DNA of 38,063 nt from Blastococcus atacamensis (GTDB lineage: Bacteria > Actinomycetota > Actinomycetes > Mycobacteriales > Geodermatophilaceae), in NCBI RefSeq assembly GCF_002938425.1, contig NZ_POQU01000030.1, positions 1-38,063 of the forward strand. Direction: 5' to 3'. A program made the position numbers and the translations under genes. Shown piece by piece: positions 5,872-33,123 of the stretch; position 1 is the stretch's first letter; each line of letters starts with the position of its first letter. The notes under the pieces are model-generated. The model was not told where the DNA came from, ran no database searches, and saw only the letters and a list, made by a program, of their open reading frames with translations.

Positions 5872-5929
5872 GAAGGACCCCGTCCCTCCCGCCGCTCGCA
5901 GGCTCACGGCGAGCCTTCGGACGGGGCCG
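5872..5929 (+). repeat. 58-bp two-tier hairpin element, copy A
   Basis: Lies in the 152-bp gap between comF and lpqB. The outer stem is CCCCGTCC (element positions 7-14) against GGACGGGG (48-55), a perfect 8 bp. The inner stem is GCTCGC (23-28) against GCGAGC (38-43). It matches copy B at 48 of 58 positions without gaps. As it follows the lpqB stop (minus strand) by 26 bp, it may also act as the lpqB terminator. Confidence 0.8.
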
Positions 5930-10220: not shown

Positions 10221-10291
10221 TCTGCGCTGATCAGGCAAGAACGTGTCCCACCCGCCCGGGTGAGATCACGTGGCAACCCGTCCCGGTGCCG

Positions 10292-10352
10292 AGGCATGGG
10301 AAGCTTTACCTGCGTTTTGGGCCCCGAAACGCAGGTAAAGCTTCCCATGCCT
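10292..10352. repeat. 61-bp near-perfect palindrome between sahH and mtrA
   Basis: The arms 10292-10317 and 10327-10352 are perfect 26-bp complements. The 9-nt centre TGGGCCCCG can pair further, including a G.T wobble. The arm contains GGGAAGCTTTACCTGCGTTT. Its GC content is near 50%, against over 70% around it. The element begins 5 bp after the sahH stop and ends ~55 bp before mtrA. It can work as a terminator, but the length, perfection and foreign composition suggest a dispersed palindromic repeat. No second copy was seen in this window. Confidence 0.85.
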
Positions 10353-10357
10353 GGGGC

Positions 10358-11842
<1,485 letters not shown>

Positions 11843-13617: not shown

Positions 13618-14211
13618 ATGACCTCGGCACAGCAATCCACCCGCCATCCAGCGGCGGCCCACGAGACGGCGATCGTCGAGGAGCCGGCCACCATCGGGGC
13701 CGGCACCCGGGTGTGGCACCACGCGCACGTGCGCACCGGCGCGACGATCGGCGCCGGGTGCGTGATCGGCAAGAACGTCTTCGTCGACGCGGGCGCCGTC
13801 GTGGGCGACCGCTGCAAGATCCAGAACAACGTCTCGGTCTACAACGGCGTGACGCTGGGATCCGACGTGTTCGTCGGACCGAGCGCGGTGTTCACCAACG
13901 ACCTGCGACCGCGGGCCGCGTCCGCCGACTGGTCGATCACGCCGACCGTCGTCCAGGACGGCGCCTCGATCGGCGCCAACGCGACCATCGTCTGCGGCAC
14001 GGTGCTCGGCACCTCCTGCATGATCGCGGCCGGCTCGGTCGTGACGCGGGACGTGGCACCCAACCAGGTGGTCGCGGGCAACCCCGCCCGGCACCACGGC
14101 TGGGTGTGCGCCTGCGGAGAACTGATCAGCCGGGACGCGGAGCGCCCCGAGGACCCCATCTGTGACCGGCACCGGGCCGGCGCACCCGACGACCGGACGG
14201 CAGAGGCATGA
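13618..14211 (+). CDS. wlbB: WlbB-like UDP-amino-sugar N-acetyltransferase (left-handed beta-helix)
   Basis: 197 residues. Hexapeptide repeats run from ~27 to 160 (for example TIGAGTRVWHHAHVRTGATI and VIGKNVFVDAGAVVGDRC). The segment FTNDLRPRA carries the Asn of WlbB/WbpD enzymes, and AGNPAR closes the helix. The family transfers acetyl from acetyl-CoA to the 3-amino group of UDP-2-acetamido-3-amino-2,3-dideoxyglucuronate. After the helix there is a tail with Cys-Ala-Cys and, 20 residues later, Cys-x2-His, perhaps a small metal knuckle. ATG 13618 has GGAG upstream. It is first in a three-gene operon; its TGA overlaps the next ATG (ATGA). Confidence 0.85.
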   Translation: MTSAQQSTRHPAAAHETAIVEEPATIGAGTRVWHHAHVRTGATIGAGCVIGKNVFVDAGAVVGDRCKIQNNVSVYNGVTLGSDVFVGPSAVFTNDLRPRAASADWSITPTVVQDGASIGANATIVCGTVLGTSCMIAAGSVVTRDVAPNQVVAGNPARHHGWVCACGELISRDAERPEDPICDRHRAGAPDDRTAEA

Positions 14212-15314
14212 CAGCCACCCAGATCCCCATCTCCGTGGTCGCCATCGGCGACGAAGAAGAGCAGCTCGTCCTCGAGGTCCTCCGCTCGGGCCGGCTGGCC
14301 CAGGGCCCGAAGGTCGAGGAGCTCGAGCGCCGCTTCGCGGCAGCCCACGACGTCGAGCACGCCATTGCCGTGAACAACGGCACCACCGCGCTGGTGGCGA
14401 CGCTGCAGGGCCTCGGCATCGGGCCGGGCGACGAGGTGATCACCACCCCGTTCAGCTTCGTGGCCACGCTGAACGCCATCCTCGAGACCGGCGCCACCGC
14501 GCGCTTCGCCGACATCGGTGACGACTTCTGCCTCGACCCCGCCGCGGTCGAGCCCCTGCTGGGCGACCGGACCCGAGTGGTCATGCCCGTCCACCTGTAC
14601 GGGCTGCCGGCCGACCTGCCCCGGTTCGACCAGCTCACCCGCGACCGGGGGCTCGCCCTCGTCGAGGACTCCGCCCAGGCGCACGGCGCTCGCATCGACG
14701 GCCGCTCGGTGGGCTCCTTCGGCGCCGGCTGCTTCTCCTTCTACGCCACGAAGAACGTCATGTGCGGCGAGGGCGGCATGATCACGACCAACGACGCGGC
14801 CCTCGCCGACCGCATCCGGGTGCTGCGCAACCAGGGCATGCGCGCCCAGTACGAGTACGAGGTGCCCGGCCACAACTACCGCCTCACCGACCTGCAGGCC
14901 GCCATCGCGCTGCCTCAGCTGGGCCGACTGGCCCAGATCAACGAGGCCCGCCGCAGCAACGCCGCATACCTGTCCGAGCACCTCCGCGACGTCCCGGGAC
15001 TCCGGCTGCCGGAGGTCCCCGCCGGACGCGAGCACGTCTTCCACCAGTACACCGTCCGCGTCACGGCGGAGGCGAGCGTGGACCGCGCGGGCTTCGTGGC
15101 GGCGCTCGGCGAGCGCGGCGTCCGGGCCGGTATCTACTACCCCCGGCTGATGCACGACTACGACTGCTACCGGGAGCACCCCCGGGTGGTCGTCGACGAG
15201 ACCCCGGTCGCCCTCCAGGCCGCGGCCGAGGCGGTCTCGCTCCCCGTCCACCCGCAGCTGAGCGGCGCGGACCTCGAGCGCATCGTCGCGGCCGTCACCG
15301 AGGTGCTCCGGTGA
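14208..15314 (+). CDS. wlbC: WlbC-like DegT/DnrJ/EryC1 sugar aminotransferase
   Basis: 368 residues. A PLP enzyme of the DegT/DnrJ/EryC1/StrS family that aminates keto-sugar nucleotides with glutamate. Visible are NNGTTALVATLQ (56-67), DEVITTPFSFVAT (75-87), VEDSAQAHGA (152-161) and the Schiff-base lysine Lys182 in FYATKNVMCGEGG. Near the C-terminus lies IYYPRLMHDYDCY. In the WbpE/WlbC setting it aminates C3 of the UDP-2-acetamido-3-keto-glucuronate made by the oxidoreductase downstream. It overlaps wlbB by 4 bp and the next gene by 4 bp, so all three are translationally coupled. Substrate is inferred from the trio, not from residues. Confidence 0.88.
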   Translation: MTATQIPISVVAIGDEEEQLVLEVLRSGRLAQGPKVEELERRFAAAHDVEHAIAVNNGTTALVATLQGLGIGPGDEVITTPFSFVATLNAILETGATARFADIGDDFCLDPAAVEPLLGDRTRVVMPVHLYGLPADLPRFDQLTRDRGLALVEDSAQAHGARIDGRSVGSFGAGCFSFYATKNVMCGEGGMITTNDAALADRIRVLRNQGMRAQYEYEVPGHNYRLTDLQAAIALPQLGRLAQINEARRSNAAYLSEHLRDVPGLRLPEVPAGREHVFHQYTVRVTAEASVDRAGFVAALGERGVRAGIYYPRLMHDYDCYREHPRVVVDETPVALQAAAEAVSLPVHPQLSGADLERIVAAVTEVLR

Positions 15315-16261
15315 CCCGCGTCGCCGTCGTCGGCGCCGGGATCATGGGCGCCAACCACGCCCGCGTCCTGCACCGCTCCCGCTCCGACCTCACGCTCATC
15401 GTCGACCCCGACGAGCGGCGCGGGCGGGCGCTGGCCGACTCCGTCGGCGCCGCCTACAGCTCATCCCTCGACGCCGTGCCCGAGCACGCCGATGCGGCGA
15501 TCGTGGCCGGTCCCAGCGAGCTGCACGCCGAGATCGGCATTCCACTGCTCGAGGCCGGTCTCGACGTCCTCATCGAGAAGCCGATCGCCATGAACGTGGC
15601 TGACGCCGACGACCTCATCAAGACGGCGAGCGCTCGCGACCGGATCCTCATGGTCGGGCACATCGAGCGCTTCAACCCGGCCGTGCTCCAGCTCGACGGG
15701 CTGATCCAGGACCCGCTGCACATCGAGCTGACGCGGATGGGGCCGTTCTCCCCGCGCGTCAGCGCCGACGTCGTGCTCGACCTGATGATCCACGACCTGG
15801 AGCTGGCCCTCGCCATCTCCGGCTCGGAGGTCGTGCGGGTGGAGGGCATCGGGCTCAAGGAGCGGACCGAGTCGCTGGACCTGGCGACCGCGCTGCTGCA
15901 GTTCCGCAACGGGGTGACCGCCACGGTGACGGCCAGCCGGATCGGTCAGCCCAAGATCCGCCGGATCGAGCTGACCCAGCGGGCGAACTTCCTCACCGTC
16001 GACCTGATCCGCCAGGACGTCGAGATCCGCCGGGTCGACCACAACGAGTTCCTGTCCGAGGGCGGCGCGCGGTACCGCCAGACCGGCATCGTCGAGATCC
16101 CGTTCCTCGACCACCAGGGCGAGCCGCTCGCGCTCGAGCTCGCGGAGTTCCTGGGCTGCGTGGCCGAGCGCCGCCAGCCGCGGGTGACCGGCCTGCAGGG
16201 ACGCCGGGCTCTCGAGCTGGCGCTGGCCGTGCGCGAGTCGGCTCAGGCCCGCAGCCGCTGA
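15311..16261 (+). CDS. wlbA: WlbA-like Gfo/Idh/MocA sugar-nucleotide 3-dehydrogenase
   Basis: 316 residues. The N-terminal Rossmann domain has VAVVGAGIMGANHARV (GAGIMG at 8-13). The hallmark EKP (Lys90-Pro91) is within VLIEKPIAMNV. VGHIERFNPAV and LMIHDLELAL carry the catalytic-region Asp/His pattern of the family. It is the NAD-dependent oxidation partner of WlbC: it oxidises C3 of UDP-GlcNAc-uronate before transamination. The GTG overlaps the wlbC stop by 4 bp. The UDP-GlcNAc 6-dehydrogenase needed to supply substrate is not in this window. A WlbA assignment over other Gfo/Idh/MocA activities relies on the operon. Confidence 0.85.
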   Translation: MTRVAVVGAGIMGANHARVLHRSRSDLTLIVDPDERRGRALADSVGAAYSSSLDAVPEHADAAIVAGPSELHAEIGIPLLEAGLDVLIEKPIAMNVADADDLIKTASARDRILMVGHIERFNPAVLQLDGLIQDPLHIELTRMGPFSPRVSADVVLDLMIHDLELALAISGSEVVRVEGIGLKERTESLDLATALLQFRNGVTATVTASRIGQPKIRRIELTQRANFLTVDLIRQDVEIRRVDHNEFLSEGGARYRQTGIVEIPFLDHQGEPLALELAEFLGCVAERRQPRVTGLQGRRALELALAVRESAQARSR

Positions 16262-16290
16262 CCCGGGCCCCCGACCACTGACGCCGTGCG

Positions 16291-16327
16291 GCGGCTCGCG
16301 ACCGGCTACGGCCGGGTCGCGTGCCGC
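16291..16327. terminator. bidirectional hairpin between wlbA and the GT2 gene
   Basis: GCGGC-T-CGCGACC (16291-16303) pairs with GGTCGCG-T-GCCGC (16315-16327): 12 bp with one T-T mismatch, around an 11-nt centre. It overlaps the last codons of the minus-strand glycosyltransferase and follows the plus-strand wlb operon by 29 bp. Confidence 0.55.
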
Positions 16328-17166
16328 CGTCGGATCCCGAGCAGTCCGACGCCCATCTGCCACACGTCGCCGGGCGTGATCCGGCTGGCGTGGTCGCGGT
16401 GCGCCGCCGACAGCCGGACCGGCACCTCCACGGGCACCAGCCCCGAGCGCTCGGCGAGGAAGCACAGCTCCGTCGACAGCAGGTAGCCCCCCTCGCTCAG
16501 CTGGGGAGCGATCGAGCGCAGCCAGGCGCCGTCGACGACGAACGTGCCCTGGGGATCGAGCGTCCGCATGCCCAGGACCACCCGGCGCAGCAGCCAGAAG
16601 CCGCCGGTGAGCACTCGGCGGAGCAGCCCGCGGTCCACGTCGGAGTCGCGGTGCCCCTTCGAGCCGATCACCACCGGATGCGACGCCGCGTCCAGTTCCA
16701 GCGCGGCGTCGAGGTCGTCGAACCCGAACGGGAGGTCGTCGGCCGTGAGCAGCACGCGGTCCCCGCGGCTGGCCGCGATCCCGGTGCGGTAGGCGTTGCC
16801 CATGCCCTTGTCCGAGGTGAGCACGACCAGGCGCACGCCGGGGCTCGCCCACTCACGCTGCAGCCGCGCGAGCAGCTCCGGTGTCCCGTCGGTCGAGCCG
16901 TTCTCCACCACGACGACCTCGGCGTCCATGCCGTCCAGGCGGGCGGCCAAGGCATGCAGCGTCGCCTCGATGGCCACGGTGCTGTTGTGCGCGGGGACGA
17001 CGTAGCTCAGCGCGGTCGTCCCGGAGGTGCCCACTGTCGAATCCTCCGCGGCGTCGGTCCGTGCCCCGTCCATGTCTCTGGCCCCAGCTCTCTCGTCGTC
17101 CCCTACGGGCCCATGTCCGCCTGGGAGGATAGAGGACGTCGGGGTACCGTCGCGGACTGTTGCCAT
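16306..17166 (-). CDS. family 2 glycosyltransferase, polyprenyl-phosphate-sugar-synthase-like
   Basis: 286 residues. The GT-A fold begins at ~48 with LSYVVPAHNST; VVVENGSTDGTPELL and KGMGNAYRTGI follow, then LLTADDLPFGFDDL in place of the usual metal-binding DxD, and VIGSKGHRDSDVDRG. This pattern resembles DPM1/GtrB-like enzymes that load a sugar onto polyprenyl phosphate on the cytoplasmic face. There are no membrane helices of the GtrB C-terminal kind, although GGFWLLRRVVLGM is hydrophobic. ATG 17166 is chosen for its GGGAGGAG Shine-Dalgarno 7 nt upstream. The gene is divergent from the GT-C-like gene (133 bp gap). Sugar and lipid are unknown. Confidence 0.8.
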   Translation of the reverse strand: MATVRDGTPTSSILPGGHGPVGDDERAGARDMDGARTDAAEDSTVGTSGTTALSYVVPAHNSTVAIEATLHALAARLDGMDAEVVVVENGSTDGTPELLARLQREWASPGVRLVVLTSDKGMGNAYRTGIAASRGDRVLLTADDLPFGFDDLDAALELDAASHPVVIGSKGHRDSDVDRGLLRRVLTGGFWLLRRVVLGMRTLDPQGTFVVDGAWLRSIAPQLSEGGYLLSTELCFLAERSGLVPVEVPVRLSAAHRDHASRITPGDVWQMGVGLLGIRRRHATRP

Positions 17167-17286
17167 CTGTGGACTCCTCCCGGCGAGGTCGGTCCGCGCC
17201 CAGGTGCTCGCGGCCGGGTTACCGGTCGAGGCCGGCGTCCGGACGCCGGCGGAGTGCCGCGGCGGCAGTCCCCGGCCACCCCCGAC

Positions 17287-17302
17287 AGGAGGTCCTCCGC
17301 TG
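17287..17302 (+). promoter_or_regulatory. AGGAGG Shine-Dalgarno with apparent CTG start codon
   Basis: AGGAGG at 17287-17292, then 7 nt, then CTG 17300-17302, in frame with the large membrane protein. No ATG, GTG or TTG lies at a usable distance in this frame: the nearest upstream GTG (~17204) has no Shine-Dalgarno, and the next ATG falls inside the first membrane helix. The site therefore suggests CTG initiation. Confidence 0.55.
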
Positions 17303-19597
17303 AGCACCGCTCTCGAGACCGCCCGCCGACCAGCGGTCGCGGCGCCGCGCGCTCGCCGGGTGCCCGAGGTGGGCGTCGTCCTGCTGGTCGGGGCGCTGGC
17401 CGCCGCCATGATGACCGTTCCGTTCCTCCACCGGCACGCCTTCTACTACGGCGGCGACAACCCCGAGTCCTTCGTCCCGCTGTGGCACCACTTCGGGCAG
17501 CAATTGCGGGCGGGGCAGTGGCCGACGATGGACCCCGCCGGCTGGTACGGCGGAAACTACGCGGCCGAGGGCACCTACGCCCTGTGGAACCCGGTGCAGG
17601 TGCTCGACTACCTGCTGGTGTCGTTGTTCGACGACCTCGCCGCGGCCGCCGCGCTGGTGCAGATCCAGTTCCTGGCCCTGCTCGCCATGGGCTCCTATCT
17701 GCTCTTCCGCGAGTACGGCGCCGGCCGGCTCGCCGCGGTCGCGGTGGCGACCGGAATCCCGACCATCGGGTTCACCGTGTTCTACGAGGCGAACGGCTGG
17801 CCCGCCGGGCTCATGGCCTTCACCTGGGTCACCTGGTTCTGGTGGGCGGCGCTCCGGCAGTCGCACGGCCGGCTCCTGCCGCTGGTCCCCTTCGTGCTCG
17901 GGGCCCTCGGCATGACCACCGGCAACCCCTATGCCGCGCTCGGCATGGTGATCGTGCTGCTCGGGCTCGCCGTCGAGCTGCTCGTGCGGCGCGAGACGCG
18001 CCGGTTGGTGCACCTCGTCGTCACCGGGGCCTGCGTGGGCGCGGTGGCCGCGCTGGTGTTCCTGCCGATGCTGGGCACCCTTCCGGTGACCGACCGCCAG
18101 GAGGTCGCCGGCCTGATGAACAGCGGGTTCCTGGTGCCCCAGCTCGGCGACGTCGCCGGTGCCAGCAGCCCGAGCTACCTGCCCGCGATCCTCAACTGGG
18201 GTGGCGCCCTCTTCGAGCGGCGCCCGTCCACCTATTTCATCTGGTTCGCGTGGCCACTTCTGCCGTGGCTGCGCTGGCGAGAGGTCCGTCGACCGGGTGG
18301 ACGACCGACCAGCGTGCTGGTGATCGCCACGGTCTTCGGCGCGCTGAGCCTCGGACCGTCGAACCTGTGGCTGTTCCGCTGGCCGATCCGGTTCATCGAG
18401 TACTTCTACCTCGCGCTGGCCGTCCTGCTCGCCCTTGCGCTCTCGCGTGGCCTGGCGACCGACGCCGTCCGGACGCGTGTGGCGGCGACCGTCGGGATCG
18501 TCGGGATCGGGGCGTACCTCGCCTTCTCCACCCGGCCCGACATCTACGCAGTCCACGCCGTGGCAACGTTCGGCGTGCTCGCACTCGTCCTTCTGGCGGT
18601 CGCCGCGACGCACCGCCGGGGCCGTGTCGCCGGGGCGGCGGTCCTCGTGCTGGGCACCGCACTGGTGCTCCTCTACCAGTCCGTGAAGTTCCCGCTCCCT
18701 ACCCGCTCGGCGAGCGCAGAGCCACTGGCCCGCGTGCCGGCGTCCCTCATCTCGCAAGCGCGCGACACGACCTCGTCGCACGAGGGCACCGTGCTGCAGC
18801 TCGGGGACCTCGAGTCGTTGGAGACGCCCCGGCTCGACCTGGACGGGGCACTCCTCTTCGGCAACCTGGGTCTCATGACCGGTCGGGAGACGGTCGTGCG
18901 GTACAGCGGCATGGGATTCGCGGAGTTCAACGAGGCCCTGTGCATGGACTACCGGGGGCAGGTCTGCCCGGAGGCCTTCGACCGGATCTGGGCACCGGTC
19001 GAGGGCATCGGCGTGCCACTGGTCGACCTCATGGAGGTGCAGACCCTGGTCATCGACGCCCACCTGCTCCCCGGCCCGGCCGGCGCGGAGCCCCCGCGGG
19101 GCTGGTCGGTGGCCGCCCGCGACGACCTCCGGACCGTGTGGGTGCGGGACGAGGCACCGAACTACGCGGGGCGGCTGTCCTGGGCCTCCCGGGACATCGA
19201 TGTGCTGTCCGAGCGCGGTGCGGGCACCAGCGAGACGGTCGCGTTCGACGCCGACACCGCGGGCGACCTCGTGTTCGCGCGCCTGGCCTGGCCGGGCTAC
19301 AGCGCGACCGTGGACGGGGAGCCCGTCGAGGTGAGCGACGGACCGGCGGGTCTGCTGAGCGTGGCCGTGCCCGCGGGTGAGCACACCCTCGAGCTGGAGT
19401 TCCGCTCCCCCGGCCTGACCGCGGGCATCGTTGCGGCCGTGCTCGCCGCCGTGGTGAGCCTGGTCCAGACCGCGGTGTGGCTGGTCCCGGCTCTCCGGCG
19501 ACGCCGGGGCGGCCCTGCGGCCGGTCCGGCAGCCCCGTCGGACCGTTCCGAGCCAACGCCGCGGGAGGCGCTCGCCGGGACCGCGGGGCGAGGATGA
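17300..19597 (+). CDS. large YfhO/GT-C-like membrane protein
   Basis: 765 residues from CTG. TM1 is at ~28-45 (EVGVVLLVGALAAAMM), followed by a first loop with YYGGDNPESFVPLWHH, then about ten further hydrophobic helices up to ~residue 465. The soluble C-terminal part has DRIWAPVEGIG, and then LAWPGYSATVDGEPVEV followed by VAVPAGEHTLELEF. This is the beta-sandwich signature of YfhO-type proteins. YfhO and GT-C enzymes transfer sugars from polyprenyl-phosphate donors outside the membrane. A final hydrophobic helix lies at ~710-735 before a polar tail. It sits between the GT2 gene and a flippase-like gene, which supports a shared lipid-linked sugar route. Acceptor and donor are unknown. Confidence 0.75.
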   Translation: MSTALETARRPAVAAPRARRVPEVGVVLLVGALAAAMMTVPFLHRHAFYYGGDNPESFVPLWHHFGQQLRAGQWPTMDPAGWYGGNYAAEGTYALWNPVQVLDYLLVSLFDDLAAAAALVQIQFLALLAMGSYLLFREYGAGRLAAVAVATGIPTIGFTVFYEANGWPAGLMAFTWVTWFWWAALRQSHGRLLPLVPFVLGALGMTTGNPYAALGMVIVLLGLAVELLVRRETRRLVHLVVTGACVGAVAALVFLPMLGTLPVTDRQEVAGLMNSGFLVPQLGDVAGASSPSYLPAILNWGGALFERRPSTYFIWFAWPLLPWLRWREVRRPGGRPTSVLVIATVFGALSLGPSNLWLFRWPIRFIEYFYLALAVLLALALSRGLATDAVRTRVAATVGIVGIGAYLAFSTRPDIYAVHAVATFGVLALVLLAVAATHRRGRVAGAAVLVLGTALVLLYQSVKFPLPTRSASAEPLARVPASLISQARDTTSSHEGTVLQLGDLESLETPRLDLDGALLFGNLGLMTGRETVVRYSGMGFAEFNEALCMDYRGQVCPEAFDRIWAPVEGIGVPLVDLMEVQTLVIDAHLLPGPAGAEPPRGWSVAARDDLRTVWVRDEAPNYAGRLSWASRDIDVLSERGAGTSETVAFDADTAGDLVFARLAWPGYSATVDGEPVEVSDGPAGLLSVAVPAGEHTLELEFRSPGLTAGIVAAVLAAVVSLVQTAVWLVPALRRRRGGPAAGPAAPSDRSEPTPREALAGTAGRG

Positions 19598-19637
19598 AGC
19601 ACCAGCCGGAGCACACGACGGAGAAGAAGGCGGTCCG

Positions 19638-20654
19638 ATGAGGGCTGACGTGCCTGAGGCGACGACCGATCCCGGACCGTCCGAGCGAACGACCGACGAG
19701 GGCGCCGCGCTGCCGACCGGCTCGAGCGGCGGGCTCCTCGTGTGGGTGCGGCGGGTCGTGGTCGTCGTGGTGGTCGCGCTGGCGACGGTCCAGGTCGTCC
19801 GCGAGTGGTCGGAGGTCTCGGCGACCCTGGCGGACCTCCAGGTCGTCCCCGTGCTGCTGTCCTTCCTCGCGGTGAGCGTGGGCGTGCTGCTGGGCCCGCT
19901 GGTCTGGCGCGAGGCGCTGGCCGCGGTGGGCTCGCAGGTGCGGATCCCCGACGCCGCCAAGATCTACCTCGTCGGCCAGCTCGGCAAGTACGTCCCGGGC
20001 TCCGTCGTGGCGTTCCTGCTCCAGATGGAGCTGGCGAAGTCGGCCGGCATCACGCGCATGAACGGCTTCATCGCCTCGCTGGTCACCGCCGGGGTCGCGG
20101 TCGTCACCTCGCTGCTGGCCGCGACGACCGCCGTTCCGGCGCTCATCCGGAACGAGCCGAGCCTGCTGTGGCTGTTCCTGCTCCTGCCGGTCGGGCTGGC
20201 CATGCTGCACCCGACCCCCCTGACCTTCGTGGTCCAGAAGCTGCTCGTGCTGCTGCGCCAGCGGCCCCTGGAGCAGCGGCTGACCGGCCGGGCCCTCGCC
20301 CGGGCGACCGGGAGCAGCCTGCTGATCTACGTCGCCTACGGCCTGCACCTGTTCGTCCTGGTCAGCTCGCTCGGTTCCGAGTGGCCGATGGGTGCGGGGC
20401 TGGGCCTCGTGCTGTGCATCGGCACGATGGGCATGGCCATGACCGCGGGCCTCGTCGCGTTCGTCCTGCCCTCGGGCATCGGCGCGCGCGAGCTGGTCGT
20501 CGTCGGTGCGCTCGCCGCGGTGCTGCCCTACGGCCAGGCGCTGGCCCTGGCCATCGTCTCCCGCGTCATGTTCACCGTCGTGGAGCTCGTCTTCGCCGGC
20601 GTCGCCACCCTCGTCGCCCGCCTGTCGGCCGACGTCCGGACGCCGGCTGCCTGA
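19638..20654 (+). CDS. lysylphosphatidylglycerol-synthase-like / UPF0104 membrane protein, possible flippase
   Basis: 338 residues. A polar N-terminus (1-30) is followed by about eight hydrophobic helices. Family markers are VWREALAAVGSQV, IYLVGQLGKYVPGSV around 112-126 and GLVAFVLPSGIGARELVVVGAL around 272-293, typical of the transmembrane part of LPG synthases and UPF0104 proteins. There is no C-terminal aminoacyl-transferase domain, so lysine transfer to lipid is unlikely. Stand-alone members occur in polysaccharide clusters and are suspected lipid flippases. ATG 19638 has a weak AAGGCGG upstream. It follows the GT-C-like gene by 40 bp and is probably co-transcribed. Confidence 0.78.
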   Translation: MRADVPEATTDPGPSERTTDEGAALPTGSSGGLLVWVRRVVVVVVVALATVQVVREWSEVSATLADLQVVPVLLSFLAVSVGVLLGPLVWREALAAVGSQVRIPDAAKIYLVGQLGKYVPGSVVAFLLQMELAKSAGITRMNGFIASLVTAGVAVVTSLLAATTAVPALIRNEPSLLWLFLLLPVGLAMLHPTPLTFVVQKLLVLLRQRPLEQRLTGRALARATGSSLLIYVAYGLHLFVLVSSLGSEWPMGAGLGLVLCIGTMGMAMTAGLVAFVLPSGIGARELVVVGALAAVLPYGQALALAIVSRVMFTVVELVFAGVATLVARLSADVRTPAA

Positions 20655-30309: not shown

Positions 30310-30368
30310 GGCCCGAACACAACCACAGCCGCCGACGGGGGACGTCGGCGGCTGGGTGAGGAATTTCT

Positions 30369-30426
30369 CGGCCCTTCGCAGGGCCCCGCCGCGAGCGTGC
30401 GAGCGGTGGGGGGCGAAGGGTCCTTC
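30369..30426 (-). repeat. 58-bp two-tier hairpin element, copy C (inverted)
   Basis: Read on the minus strand it aligns without gaps to copies A and B over 58 positions. Its outer stem is CCCTTCGC/GCGAAGGG, a perfect 8 bp. Relative to copy A, pairs 10-52, 11-51, 12-50 and 13-49 are all changed on both sides. The loop CCGCTCGCACGCTC is kept, but the inner-stem partner GCGAGC has been lost. It lies 10 bp after the whiB2 stop and may terminate whiB2. Confidence 0.7.
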
Positions 30427-30435
30427 AGGGGGTCC

Positions 30436-30816
30436 TTAGACGGCGCGGCGGCGGAGCCGGCGGCGCTCACGCTCGGAGAGGCCACCCCAGATGCCGAAGC
30501 GCTCGTCGTTGGCCAGCGCGTACTCGAGGCACTGGGCCTTGACCTCGCAGCCGGTGCAGATCTTCTTGGCCTCCCGCGTCGAGCCGCCCTTCTCGGGGAA
30601 GAACGCCTCCGGGTCCGTCTCCGCGCACAGCGCCTGCTCCTGCCAGGACTGCGCGTCGGCCTCCAGGCCGAAGCCCAGGAACCCGACGAAGGGCTGGCCG
30701 GTGCCCTGGCCCACGGCCTGCTGCCCCACGCCCGAGGCCACCGAGGTGACCCCCAGACGGTCGGCCGACCGCTCTGTCCCGTTCACGTAATCGCTCAACC
30801 ACGACACCTCAGCCAT
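30436..30816 (-). CDS. whiB2: WhiB2-type iron-sulfur transcription factor
   Basis: 126 residues from MAEVSWLSDYV. The four cluster-binding cysteines are Cys64, Cys87, Cys90 and Cys96 (LCAETDPEAFFP ... ICTGC ... AQC). The conserved GIWGG turn is at 108-112, and a basic tail SERERRRLRRR binds DNA. The WhiB2/WhiB class is essential for septation and sporulation control (WhmD in mycobacteria, WhiB in Streptomyces) and binds SigA. An upstream GTG frame to 30894 exists, but the family begins near MAEVS and AGGGGA lies ~10 nt upstream of this ATG. It has a good promoter with a long leader. It is divergent from cofD, as Rv3260c is from fbiA. Confidence 0.95.
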   Translation of the reverse strand: MAEVSWLSDYVNGTERSADRLGVTSVASGVGQQAVGQGTGQPFVGFLGFGLEADAQSWQEQALCAETDPEAFFPEKGGSTREAKKICTGCEVKAQCLEYALANDERFGIWGGLSERERRRLRRRAV

Positions 30817-31048: not shown

Positions 31049-32008
31049 ATGCGTTTCGTGCAGATCGTCGTGCTGGCAGGTGGGACCGGAGGGGCTCGAT
31101 TCCTGCGCGGAGTCCGCGCGGCGGCCCCTGAGGCGGAGATCACCGCCGTCGTGAACACCGGCGACGACGTGACGATGCACGGCCTGCGGATCTGCCCGGA
31201 CCTCGACACGGTCATGTACACCCTCGGCGGCGGCATCGACGAGGAGCGCGGCTGGGGCCGGGCCGGGGAGAGCTGGACGGTCAAGGAGGAGCTGGCCGCC
31301 TACGACGCCGACCCCACCTGGTTCGGCCTGGGCGACCGCGACCTCGCCACGCACCTGGTGCGCACCCGGATGCTCGACGCCGGCTACGCCCTGTCCGCCG
31401 TCACCGCCGCGCTGTGCGCCCGCTGGCAGCCGGGCGTGACGCTGCTGCCGATGAGCGACCAGCGGGTGGAGACCCACGTCGTCGTCACCGACCCCGAGAG
31501 CGGGCGGCCGCAGGCGATCCACTTCCAGGAGTGGTGGGTGCGCCACCGCGCCGCGCTGGACCCGGCGGCCTTCGTCCAGGTGGGCGTGGACGCCGCCCGC
31601 CCGGCCCCCGGCGTGGTCGAGGCCTTCGCCGCGGCCGACGCGATCCTGCTGGCGCCGTCGAACCCCGTGGTCTCCATCGGCACCGTCCTGGGCGTGCCCG
31701 GTCTGCGGGAGGCGCTGCTGGCCTCCCCGGCCCGCGTCGCGGGCGTCTCCCCGATCGTGGGTGGCGCTGTGGTGCGCGGCATGGCGGACCGCTGCCTGCC
31801 CGCCATGGGCATCGAGGTCAGCGCCGAGGGCGTGGGCCGGCACTACGGGGCCCGCTCCGAGGGCGGGCTGCTCGACGCGTGGCTGGTGGCCGAGGACGAC
31901 GCCGCCGACGTGCCGGGCGTGGACGTGCGCGCCCGCCCGCTGCTCATGTCCTCCCCCGAGGCCACCACCGACCTCGCCCGAGCCGCACTCGGCGCCTGCG
32001 CCCGGTGA
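31049..32008 (+). CDS. cofD: 2-phospho-L-lactate transferase (CofD/FbiA), F420 biosynthesis
   Basis: 319 residues. It joins the activated phospholactate or phosphoenolpyruvyl group to the deazaflavin Fo, giving (dehydro-)F420-0. Visible are VVLAGGTGGARFLRGV (7-22), VVNTGDDVTMHGLRICPDLDTVMYTL, LAPSNPVVSIGTVL around residue 205, and SPIVGGAVVRGMADRCL. Length is standard. ATG 31049 has only a weak AGG upstream. A 232-bp gap to the divergent whiB2 holds the promoters. It overlaps cofE by 4 bp (GTGA). It corresponds to fbiA (Rv3261). Confidence 0.95.
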   Translation: MRFVQIVVLAGGTGGARFLRGVRAAAPEAEITAVVNTGDDVTMHGLRICPDLDTVMYTLGGGIDEERGWGRAGESWTVKEELAAYDADPTWFGLGDRDLATHLVRTRMLDAGYALSAVTAALCARWQPGVTLLPMSDQRVETHVVVTDPESGRPQAIHFQEWWVRHRAALDPAAFVQVGVDAARPAPGVVEAFAAADAILLAPSNPVVSIGTVLGVPGLREALLASPARVAGVSPIVGGAVVRGMADRCLPAMGIEVSAEGVGRHYGARSEGGLLDAWLVAEDDAADVPGVDVRARPLLMSSPEATTDLARAALGACAR

Positions 32009-33123
32009 CCGACGAAGGACCCCGTCCTCCTCACGGCTCGCACGCTCGCCGCGAGCCTCTGGACGGCGCCGTTCCATCGGGCGTCTCGGTCGTCCCCGTC
32101 GCCGGACTGCCGGAGTTCGCCCCCGGGGACGACCTGGCCGCCGTCGTGGCGTCGGCCGCGCCCTGGCTCGCCGACGGCGACGTCGTCGTCGTCACCTCCA
32201 AGGTCGTCTCCAAGGTCGAGGGCCGGGTGGTCCACGTGCCGCCCGGTGAGGACCGCGAGACAGTGCGCCAGCGGGCCATCGACGGTGAGACGGTGCGCAC
32301 GGTGGCCCGCCGGGGACCGCTGAAGATCGTGCAGACCCCGCAGGGGTGGGTGGTGGCCGCGGCCGGCATCGACGCGTCGAACGTCGCCTCCGACACCCTC
32401 GTGCTGCTCCCCGCCGACGGCGATGCCTCCGCCCGGCGGCTGCGGGCCCGGCTGCACGAGCTGGCCGGGGTCGACGTCGCCGTGGTCGTGAGCGACACCT
32501 TCGGCCGCACCTGGCGCGAGGGCCTCACCGACGTCGCGGTCGGTGCGGCCGGGATCCCGGCGCTGGAGGACCACCGCGGAGCGGTGGACGGGCACGGCAA
32601 CCGGCTCGAGACCACCCGCGTGGCCGTGGTCGACGAGATCGCGTCGGCCGCCGACCTGGTCAAGGGAAAGCTGGCCGGCGTCCCGGTGGCCGTGGTCCGG
32701 GGCCTCGCCCTGCGGCGCAGCGCCGGCGACCTCGACGAGGGCACCCGGCCGCTGGTCCGCCTCCCGGCCGACGATCTCTTTCCCTACGGCTCGCGGGACG
32801 TCGTCACCTCGCGCGCGCCCGGAACCGGCCTGGTCCCCCGGCCCGGGGAGCGCGAGGCGGTCGCCGAGGCCTTCCGCGTCGCGGCCGCCGCCCTGCCGGA
32901 GTTCCCCGTCGTGCTGCGCTACGGCGGCGAGGACGACGGCGTCGTCGACGTGCACCTCTCCGACGCCGTCACCGTGACGACCGCGCTGAACCTCGGCGCC
33001 GTGGTCGGTGTCGCCGTCGTCCAGCTGCACGCCATGGGTTGGGCGACCCGGTGGGAACCCGTCGGCACCTCCGGGGGGACCTCACTCGTCGGGAGGCTGT
33101 GGTTGGGCGATCCGGGGCTCTGA
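32005..33123 (+). CDS. cofE: F420-0:gamma-glutamyl ligase (CofE/FbiB) with short C-terminal domain
   Basis: 372 residues. Residues ~27-255 are the CofE ligase that adds glutamates to F420-0: [19 protein letters not shown], then [35 protein letters not shown] and [19 protein letters not shown]. The following ~115 residues end in [21 protein letters not shown], resembling only the last part of the nitroreductase-like domain of FbiB, which normally spans ~200 residues and reduces dehydro-F420-0. The first ~22 residues are encoded by hairpin element copy B; no other ATG/GTG/TTG start is available before the conserved core. GTG 32005 overlaps the cofD stop. Confidence 0.9.
32014..32071 (+). repeat. 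58-bp two-tier hairpin element, copy B, inside the cofE reading frame
   Basis: Identical to copy A at 48 of 58 positions without gaps. The outer stem CCCCGTCC/GGACGGCG pairs at 7 of 8 positions; the inner stem GGCTCGC/GCGAGCC is a perfect 7 bp. It starts 9 bp after the cofE GTG and is read as [20 protein letters not shown]-type sequence. Confidence 0.8.

What the first reader, a model, noticed from the sequence alone, without database searches (positions are those of the whole stretch)
5872..5929. 58-bp hairpin element family with compensatory changes (copies A, B, C)
Three gap-free 58-bp copies occur in one window: 5872-5929, 32014-32071, and inverted at 30369-30426. A and B agree at 48 of 58 positions. 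Between A and C, four outer-stem pairs are replaced on both sides (C:G to T:A, G:C to T:A, T:A to C:G, C:G to G:C) while all 8 pairs are kept. That covariation means the fold, as RNA or as cruciform DNA, is under selection or is generated by structure-dependent copying. The constant parts are GAAGGACCC and CCGCTCGCA. Each copy directly abuts or follows a gene end. This looks like a REP/BIME-like family, possibly with terminator or mRNA-stability function, that I do not know as a described family.
Basis: seen in the sequence. Interest (0 to 1): 0.75.

Follow-up and report, generated by a model that had tools for sequence, protein, structure and literature searches.

The report
Stop-codon-hugging DNA hairpin repeat family
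The three hairpins belong to a large, apparently undescribed family of short repeated DNA elements in desert and stone bacteria that are found mostly directly behind the ends of genes, although the enzyme known to move similar repeats elsewhere was not found in these bacteria.

Summary
In detail: copies A, B, C are at the stated coordinates (A-B identity 47/58, not 48), and four outer-stem pairs differ on both sides between A and C. They belong to a large family: 149 matches at E<=0.01 in the window's own genome (scoring cap 150), and matches in all 19 congeners of that search. Of 80 listed loci in a capped named-genome scan, 79 are Geodermatophilaceae, one is labelled Bacillus. Genus of the window: Blastococcus (inferred). 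Copies are dispersed insertions: of 68 own copies with an orthologous region held in the sister genome, 38 have no model match there (28 with a net gain of 40 bp or more; at least one missed copy). The co-oriented upstream stop codon lies at -4..+3 nt in 67 of 78 cases; a named set of relatives repeats this (79 of 95). A plain terminator role is not supported: native hairpins persist downstream (9/29) as often as at ends without an element (30/98), and sense-strand wobble is not in excess. Y1/RAYT transposase: 0 of 112 family genomes. Best reading: an untagged, RAYT-less REP-like DNA-hairpin element at stop codons, its stems kept matched at DNA level (inferred). The mover is unknown. New variant of a known kind.

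The parts
5872..5929 (+). copy A; lies antisense between two minus-strand genes
   Evidence: (E 1.6e-10); in the orthologous gap six relatives (G006, G026, G100, G023, G022, G011) have a model match of opposite orientation
32014..32071 (+). copy B; at the cofD / F420-ligase GTGA junction, 57 bp (19 codons) longer than in G021, in frame
   Evidence: filled in 7 of 23 genus genomes (one of the 7 inverted), not filled in 16; frame read in five genomes
32072..32076 (+). TTCCA, start of the 3' tail GTTCCAGCACGTCACC that follows part of the copies
30369..30426 (-). copy C; between the WhiB stop codon and the native terminator-like hairpin
   Evidence: (best hit, E 1.1e-12)
30427..30435 (-). GGACCCCCT directly after the WhiB TAA stop; looks like the 5' remnant of an older element at the same site (inference)
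   Evidence: TAAGGACC starts the element at this site in G022 and G005
30326..30354 (.). CAGCCGCCGAC...GTCGGCGGCTG hairpin downstream of copy C, kept in most filled and unfilled relatives; probable native terminator of the WhiB gene (inference)
32005..33123 (+). F420-0:gamma-glutamyl ligase gene; copy B encodes part of its N-terminus
   Evidence: (PF01996, E 9.1e-50)
31049..32008 (+). cofD gene upstream of copy B
   Evidence: PF01933, E 4.1e-60
30436..30816 (-). WhiB-family gene upstream of copy C
   Evidence: PF02467, E 9.7e-27

Best explanation
A dispersed, REP-like DNA element of Geodermatophilaceae: a 58-bp two-part hairpin (GAAGGACC, variable outer stem, inner stem with a conserved A.C position, loop TCGCANGCTC, CCCTG, outer stem, GGCC), in part of the copies with a 3' tail GTTCCAGCACGTCACC. 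It lies directly behind stop codons, mostly in the gene's orientation, as an insertion, generally without a target-site duplication and without displacing the native terminator. Shown: family, dispersal, stop-codon abutment, presence/absence between sister species, no Y1/RAYT transposase found. Inferred: that the stems are kept matched at DNA level (a single-stranded or cruciform hairpin in which one arm templates the other, or DNA-level selection) rather than by selection on the sense RNA; that an unidentified machinery moves it; that effects on the host (mRNA 3' end, ribosome release) are secondary.
For: 149 matches at E<=0.01 in the own genome and matches in 20 of 20 genus genomes, own included, 2-150 each (cap 150); 9 of 9 family genomes but 2 of 72 others in an order sample. 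Own vs sister G021: 68 of 112 own copies have an orthologous region held; 25 filled same way, 5 inverted, 38 without a model match, 28 of these with a net gain of 40 bp or more. Of 16 of these 38 printed with real flanks, cases 37, 105, 31, 53 and 68 show the extra DNA right after TGA/TAG. Stop codon at -4..+3: 67 of 78 own, 79 of 95 named relatives, 56 of 63 G021, 34 of 47 syntenic (sets overlap in part). Divergent gaps avoided: 5 of 95 element-bearing pairs although they hold 14.7 of 48.9 kb of intergenic DNA. Native hairpins retained, 9/29 vs 30/98. Y1 transposase 0 of 112. No general TSD. Sense-strand wobble not in excess: G.T 10, A.C 20 in 43 codirectional copies.
Against: The mover is unknown, and off-stop copies show no TGA/TAG motif at the edge, so DNA targeting alone does not explain the abutment; selection or RNA function may contribute. 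Compensated changes also occur at high-identity orthologous copies (20 both-sided cells, 16 of them Watson-Crick, against 2.9 expected and 41 single-sided, counted from both sides), which selection on a fold also predicts. An apparent split between decaying inherited copies and compensated replaced copies was not reproduced. The minus strand folds better in 108 of 112, largely through one conserved A.C column; in the 16 antisense copies wobble on the transcribed strand is slightly more frequent (9 vs 5), so an antisense RNA role is not excluded. Copy B is 98% identical between own and G006 while flanks are 85-93%, and its peptide is much alike in five genomes, unlike a decaying insertion. Of the 38 'empty' G021 sites, 10 show a net gain below 40 bp and one (case 41) plainly holds a copy the model missed.
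Confidence: 0.6

Rival explanations
1. Transcription terminator or mRNA 3'-end stabiliser: the RNA hairpin behind the stop codon ends or protects the transcript, and selection on the RNA keeps the stem paired.
For: Position behind stop codons and between convergent genes (22 of 95 element-bearing pairs); strong fold and covariation; compensated changes at orthologous sites; at site C several unfilled relatives carry a plain GC hairpin instead.
Against: No U-run in the consensus after the hairpin in the sense direction (98 copies); native hairpins remain downstream at the usual rate (9/29 vs 30/98 with 50 bp or more to the next gene; 0 of 14 where the gap is shorter); no excess of G.U on the sense strand and few G.U; copy B sits in frame in the F420-ligase gene in five genomes; no model match at 38 of 68 sister sites.
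Confidence: 0.2
2. A classical REP family whose RAYT was lost: the copies are fossils of past Y1-transposase activity.
For: Gene-end position, occasional inverted neighbours and intragenic copies resemble REPs as described in PMC3733652 section 15; [quoted passage not shown]
Against: Y1 transposase in 0 of 112 genomes across 12 genera; no tag at the 5' edge (GTAG in 10 of 112); many differences between sister species, which suggests turnover after any family-wide loss.
Confidence: 0.2
3. A MIRU-like element: it moves into stop/start junctions so that coupled genes stay expressed.
For: Copy B at the GTGA junction of cofD and the F420 ligase with frame kept; case 88 shows AGGCATGA on the left and AGGCGTGA on the right of the element, so that one gene keeps a stop and the next its start. 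MIRUs are described as inserting at start codons with coupling (PMC12548453, one passage).
Against: Most of 112 copies are at gene ends followed by intergenic gaps or convergent genes; no general target duplication. A coupled small ORF in the element was not tested.
Confidence: 0.1
4. Chance or GC-rich low-complexity hairpins.
For: The window is 73.7% GC; the loose pattern had more reversed-control hits (41) than real hits (30).
Against: CM E-values to 1e-12, shared loop and tail motifs, family-restricted distribution.
Confidence: 0.01

Closest known systems
REP/BIME repeats (GTAG- and CGTC-tagged families, PMC3733652)
   Same: High-copy palindromic repeats beside 3' ends of genes, between unidirectional and convergent genes, sometimes in frame inside genes and sometimes supplying the stop codon (abstract and section 15 read)
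   Different: 58 bp plus tail rather than 20-40 bp; no tag at the 5' edge; no Y1/RAYT gene found in the family; closer to the stop codon than the distances I saw described there (<20 bp)
E. coli REPs within 15 nt of stop codons
   Same: Hairpin close behind the stop; passages in PMC12306157 say that an earlier study found such REPs stall ribosomes and down-regulate translation
   Different: 446 of 4,072 REPs by RepRanger, 260 of 496 by that earlier study, are that close; here 67 of 78 co-oriented upstream stops lie at -4..+3
MIRU (mycobacterial interspersed repetitive units)
   Same: Actinobacterial short mobile repeat at gene junctions (one passage in PMC12548453)
   Different: Sequences were not compared; the present element is a hairpin and mostly not at coupled junctions
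Template switching between hairpin arms (PMC8794818, PMC7202029; listing and start of abstract only)
   Same: A mutational process that changes both arms in concert
   Different: A process, not an element family

Membership tests
REP (GTAG/CGTC superfamilies) | High-copy extragenic palindrome | tested here: met
   149 matches at E<=0.01 (cap 150); 13 of 112 in called genes, some probably by caller error
REP (GTAG/CGTC superfamilies) | GTAG or CGTC tag at one end | tested here: not met
   at -3..0 GTAG in 10 of 112; at -8..+3 GTAG 16 and CGTC 3 of 112; within 8 nt after GGCC either tag in 4 and its complement in 6 of 98; CGTC occurs further out in the tail (within 18 nt) in 31 of 98
REP (GTAG/CGTC superfamilies) | Location at 3' ends, avoiding divergent gaps | tested here: met
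RAYT-mobilised REP | Y1 (PF01797) transposase in the genome or lineage | tested here: not met
   0 of 112 family genomes; control genomes positive 5 of 14
Intrinsic terminator | U-run after the hairpin in the gene's direction | tested here: not met
   consensus tail GTTCCAG... over 98 copies; single copies not checked; the minus direction has TCCTTC
Intrinsic terminator | Takes the place of other terminators | tested here: not met
   9/29 vs 30/98 native hairpins retained; exceptions at site C
Intrinsic terminator | Ends transcripts in vivo | not testable with these tools
   no RNA-seq available
MITE | Target-site duplication | tested here: not met
   direct repeats at the edges close to control in 203 copies; 3 of 203 reach 9 nt or more (0.6 expected), two of them in tandem arrays
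MITE | Parent DDE element with the same ends | not tested
   no search made
MIRU | Insertion at stop/start junctions with coupled ORF | tested here: inconclusive
   site B and case 88 fit the junction; most copies do not; no coupled ORF was looked for
Rfam families | Match at gathering score | tested here: not met
   0 in the window

The most novel reading that the evidence does not exclude
A mobile DNA-hairpin element with no known transposase whose insertion is coupled to translation stop codons, and whose stems are renewed by arm-to-arm templated copying, so that perfect covariation arises without RNA selection.
Probability: 0.25. Interest if true: 0.8.

Novelty: new variant of a known kind. 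Interest (0 to 1): 0.55.

Why it matters
REP-like repeats are often explained by RAYT transposases. Here a family-wide hairpin repeat with high turnover exists where no Y1 transposase was found in any of 112 genomes, which makes other routes of dispersal testable. The near-exact placement at stop codons poses a clear question (targeting or selection), and the abundant compensation without an excess of sense-strand wobble warns that covariation alone does not prove an RNA function.

Tried and rejected
Rfam on the window gave nothing. The idea that elements replace terminators first seemed supported (9 of 96 element ends vs 56 of 164 others have a strong hairpin), but that stretch is filled by the element itself; scanning beyond it reversed the conclusion. 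A GTAG/CGTC tag was tested and dropped. A general TSD was tested and dropped. The bimodal single/double-change pattern was not confirmed and is not relied on. In one search the flanks printed for the empty allele are copies of the filled allele's flanks; one search shows real ones. Gene calls come from a home-made codon-model caller, not from annotation. One search stopped with a script error after its first two lines; the rest was rerun. Papers: PMC12306157 passages; PMC3733652 passages, abstract and section 15; PMC9686282 passages; PMC12548453 one passage; for all others only the listings.

Full report
Observation. The three 58-bp copies are where the finding puts them. A-B identity is 47/58. 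The outer arms of A and C differ at four pairs on both sides with all eight pairs kept. A, B and C are all found in the own-genome model search.

Family size and range. A 12-copy alignment gave model R1. In the own genome (3.89 Mb, 163 contigs, window = contig C88) it finds 150 matches at E<=1 and 149 at E<=0.01; 150 is the scoring cap, so the true number may be higher, and a few matches are partial. All 20 genus genomes (own plus 19 others) are positive, with 2 to 150 matches. In an order sample of 81 genomes, 9 of 9 of the window's family and 2 of 72 others have matches; the two outsiders have three hits in all, which I could not tell from contamination. G027's contig of 1,179,004 bases equals in length NZ_HG931174.1, Candidatus Blastococcus massiliensis, so the window's genus is Blastococcus by inference.

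Anatomy. GAAGGACC; variable outer stem; inner stem with a conserved A opposite C (80 of 112); loop TCGCANGCTC; CCCTG; outer stem; GGCC; in roughly half of 98 copies the next letters follow GTTCCAG. Tandem arrays (66 and 84 bp) and some head-to-head pairs occur.

Covariation. 283 both-sided cells in 112 copies against 105.8 expected by shuffling and 9-30 with slid partners; 186 against 33.5 and 7-40 in 122 named copies. These alignments were fitted to the model, so counts lean towards the structure. Wobble: leaving out three columns, G.T 34 and A.C 55 over 112 copies (32 and 38 if a fourth column is left out too); 10 and 20 (10 and 15) in 43 codirectional, stop-abutting copies; in 16 antisense copies, where the minus strand is the transcribed one, A.C 9 and G.T 5 (6 and 4). 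Selection on the sense RNA would predict more G.U on that strand. At 25 orthologous same-orientation pairs with G021 (two G021 copies used twice) both compensated and uncompensated changes occur: in the 18 with identity 0.8 or more, 20 both-sided and 41 single-sided cells, 2.9 both-sided expected; in the other 7, 26 and 38, 9.9 expected. Arm-to-arm template switching is a described process that could give this (listing only); selection on a DNA hairpin is the alternative. This point is inference.

Context. Gene calls come from my own codon model. The 112 own copies come from targeted regions, not a random sample: 51 between codirectional genes in element sense, 16 in antisense, 26 convergent, 4 divergent, 13 inside called genes, 2 at edges. 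The co-oriented left gene's stop is at -4..+3 in 67 of 78; of 16 antisense copies, 8 have the other end at a stop. Replication: 79 of 95 (named set, Blastococcus included), 56 of 63 (G021), 34 of 47 (syntenic regions of 21 genomes) (sets overlap in part). Off-stop copies show no common TGA/TAG at the edge.

Insertion and turnover. Site B: 7 of 23 genus genomes carry an element (one inverted), 16 have a short junction; in the own genome it adds 57 bp to the F420-ligase N-terminus compared with G021, and own, G006, G005, G022 and G023 all read through it in frame with a similar peptide. Site C: elements of differing stem type in several genomes, plain hairpins in others, the downstream hairpin mostly kept. 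Site A: opposite orientation in six relatives with model matches. A 21-genome tree puts G021 as sister (support 0.93). Own against G021: of 112, 44 not held, 25 filled alike, 5 inverted, 38 without a model match (G021 regions were chosen around its own copies, which favours 'filled'). Of the 38, 28 show a net gain of 40 bp or more in the own genome and 10 do not; case 41 plainly holds a copy that the model missed. Real-flank alignments of 16 of the 38 show several clean additions after TGA or TAG, two cases (34, 48) where the element seems to supply an earlier stop, and some less clear ones. No general TSD.

Terminator test. Strong hairpins occur at 56 of 164 ends without an element and in 6 of 164 shuffled sequences. 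Downstream of stop-abutting codirectional elements with at least 50 bp to the next gene, 9 of 29 keep such a hairpin, against 30 of 98 comparable ends without an element; where the gap is shorter, 0 of 14. The element thus seems inserted between stop and terminator rather than replacing it.

Mover. A Y1 transposase (PF01797) was found in 0 of 112 genomes of the family, 96 of them at least 90% complete and at most 5% contaminated; 5 of 14 control genomes were positive. Other transposase families were not tested.

Comparison and novelty. Position and intragenic cases match REPs; tag and transposase do not. No description was seen in the listings or in the passages read; subscription literature was not searched. 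I file it as a new variant of a known kind: REP-like, not a member of the tagged REP superfamilies.

Noticed in passing
window 10289-10355: A nearly perfect 33-bp inverted repeat (1-nt spacer) directly behind the stop of the minus-strand gene ending at 10358; similar palindromes occur in own-genome loci L103 and L105, in relatives (L201, L202, L204, L228) and in L337, so it looks like a second palindromic repeat family.
   Followed up: partly
window 14208-20654: Five genes called in this block (among them a DegT-type aminotransferase and a protein with a weak YfhO match) were matched in no other of 21 syntenic regions; looks like a strain- or species-specific island, perhaps for surface sugars.
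   Followed up: no
window 32014-32071 and relatives: Copy B is 98% identical between own and G006, although their sisters G021 and G026 lack it and flanks are 85-93% identical: precise loss, lateral exchange, repeated insertion or selection on the peptide.
   Followed up: partly
G022, G023, G005 at site C: Three closely related genomes carry clearly different elements at the same stop codon (65-77% element identity, left flanks about 95-97%), suggesting replacement in place.
   Followed up: partly
L137, L097:17895-17953, L120, L117: Behind several tails follow partial copies of the element's right half, as if by repeated unequal duplication.
   Followed up: no
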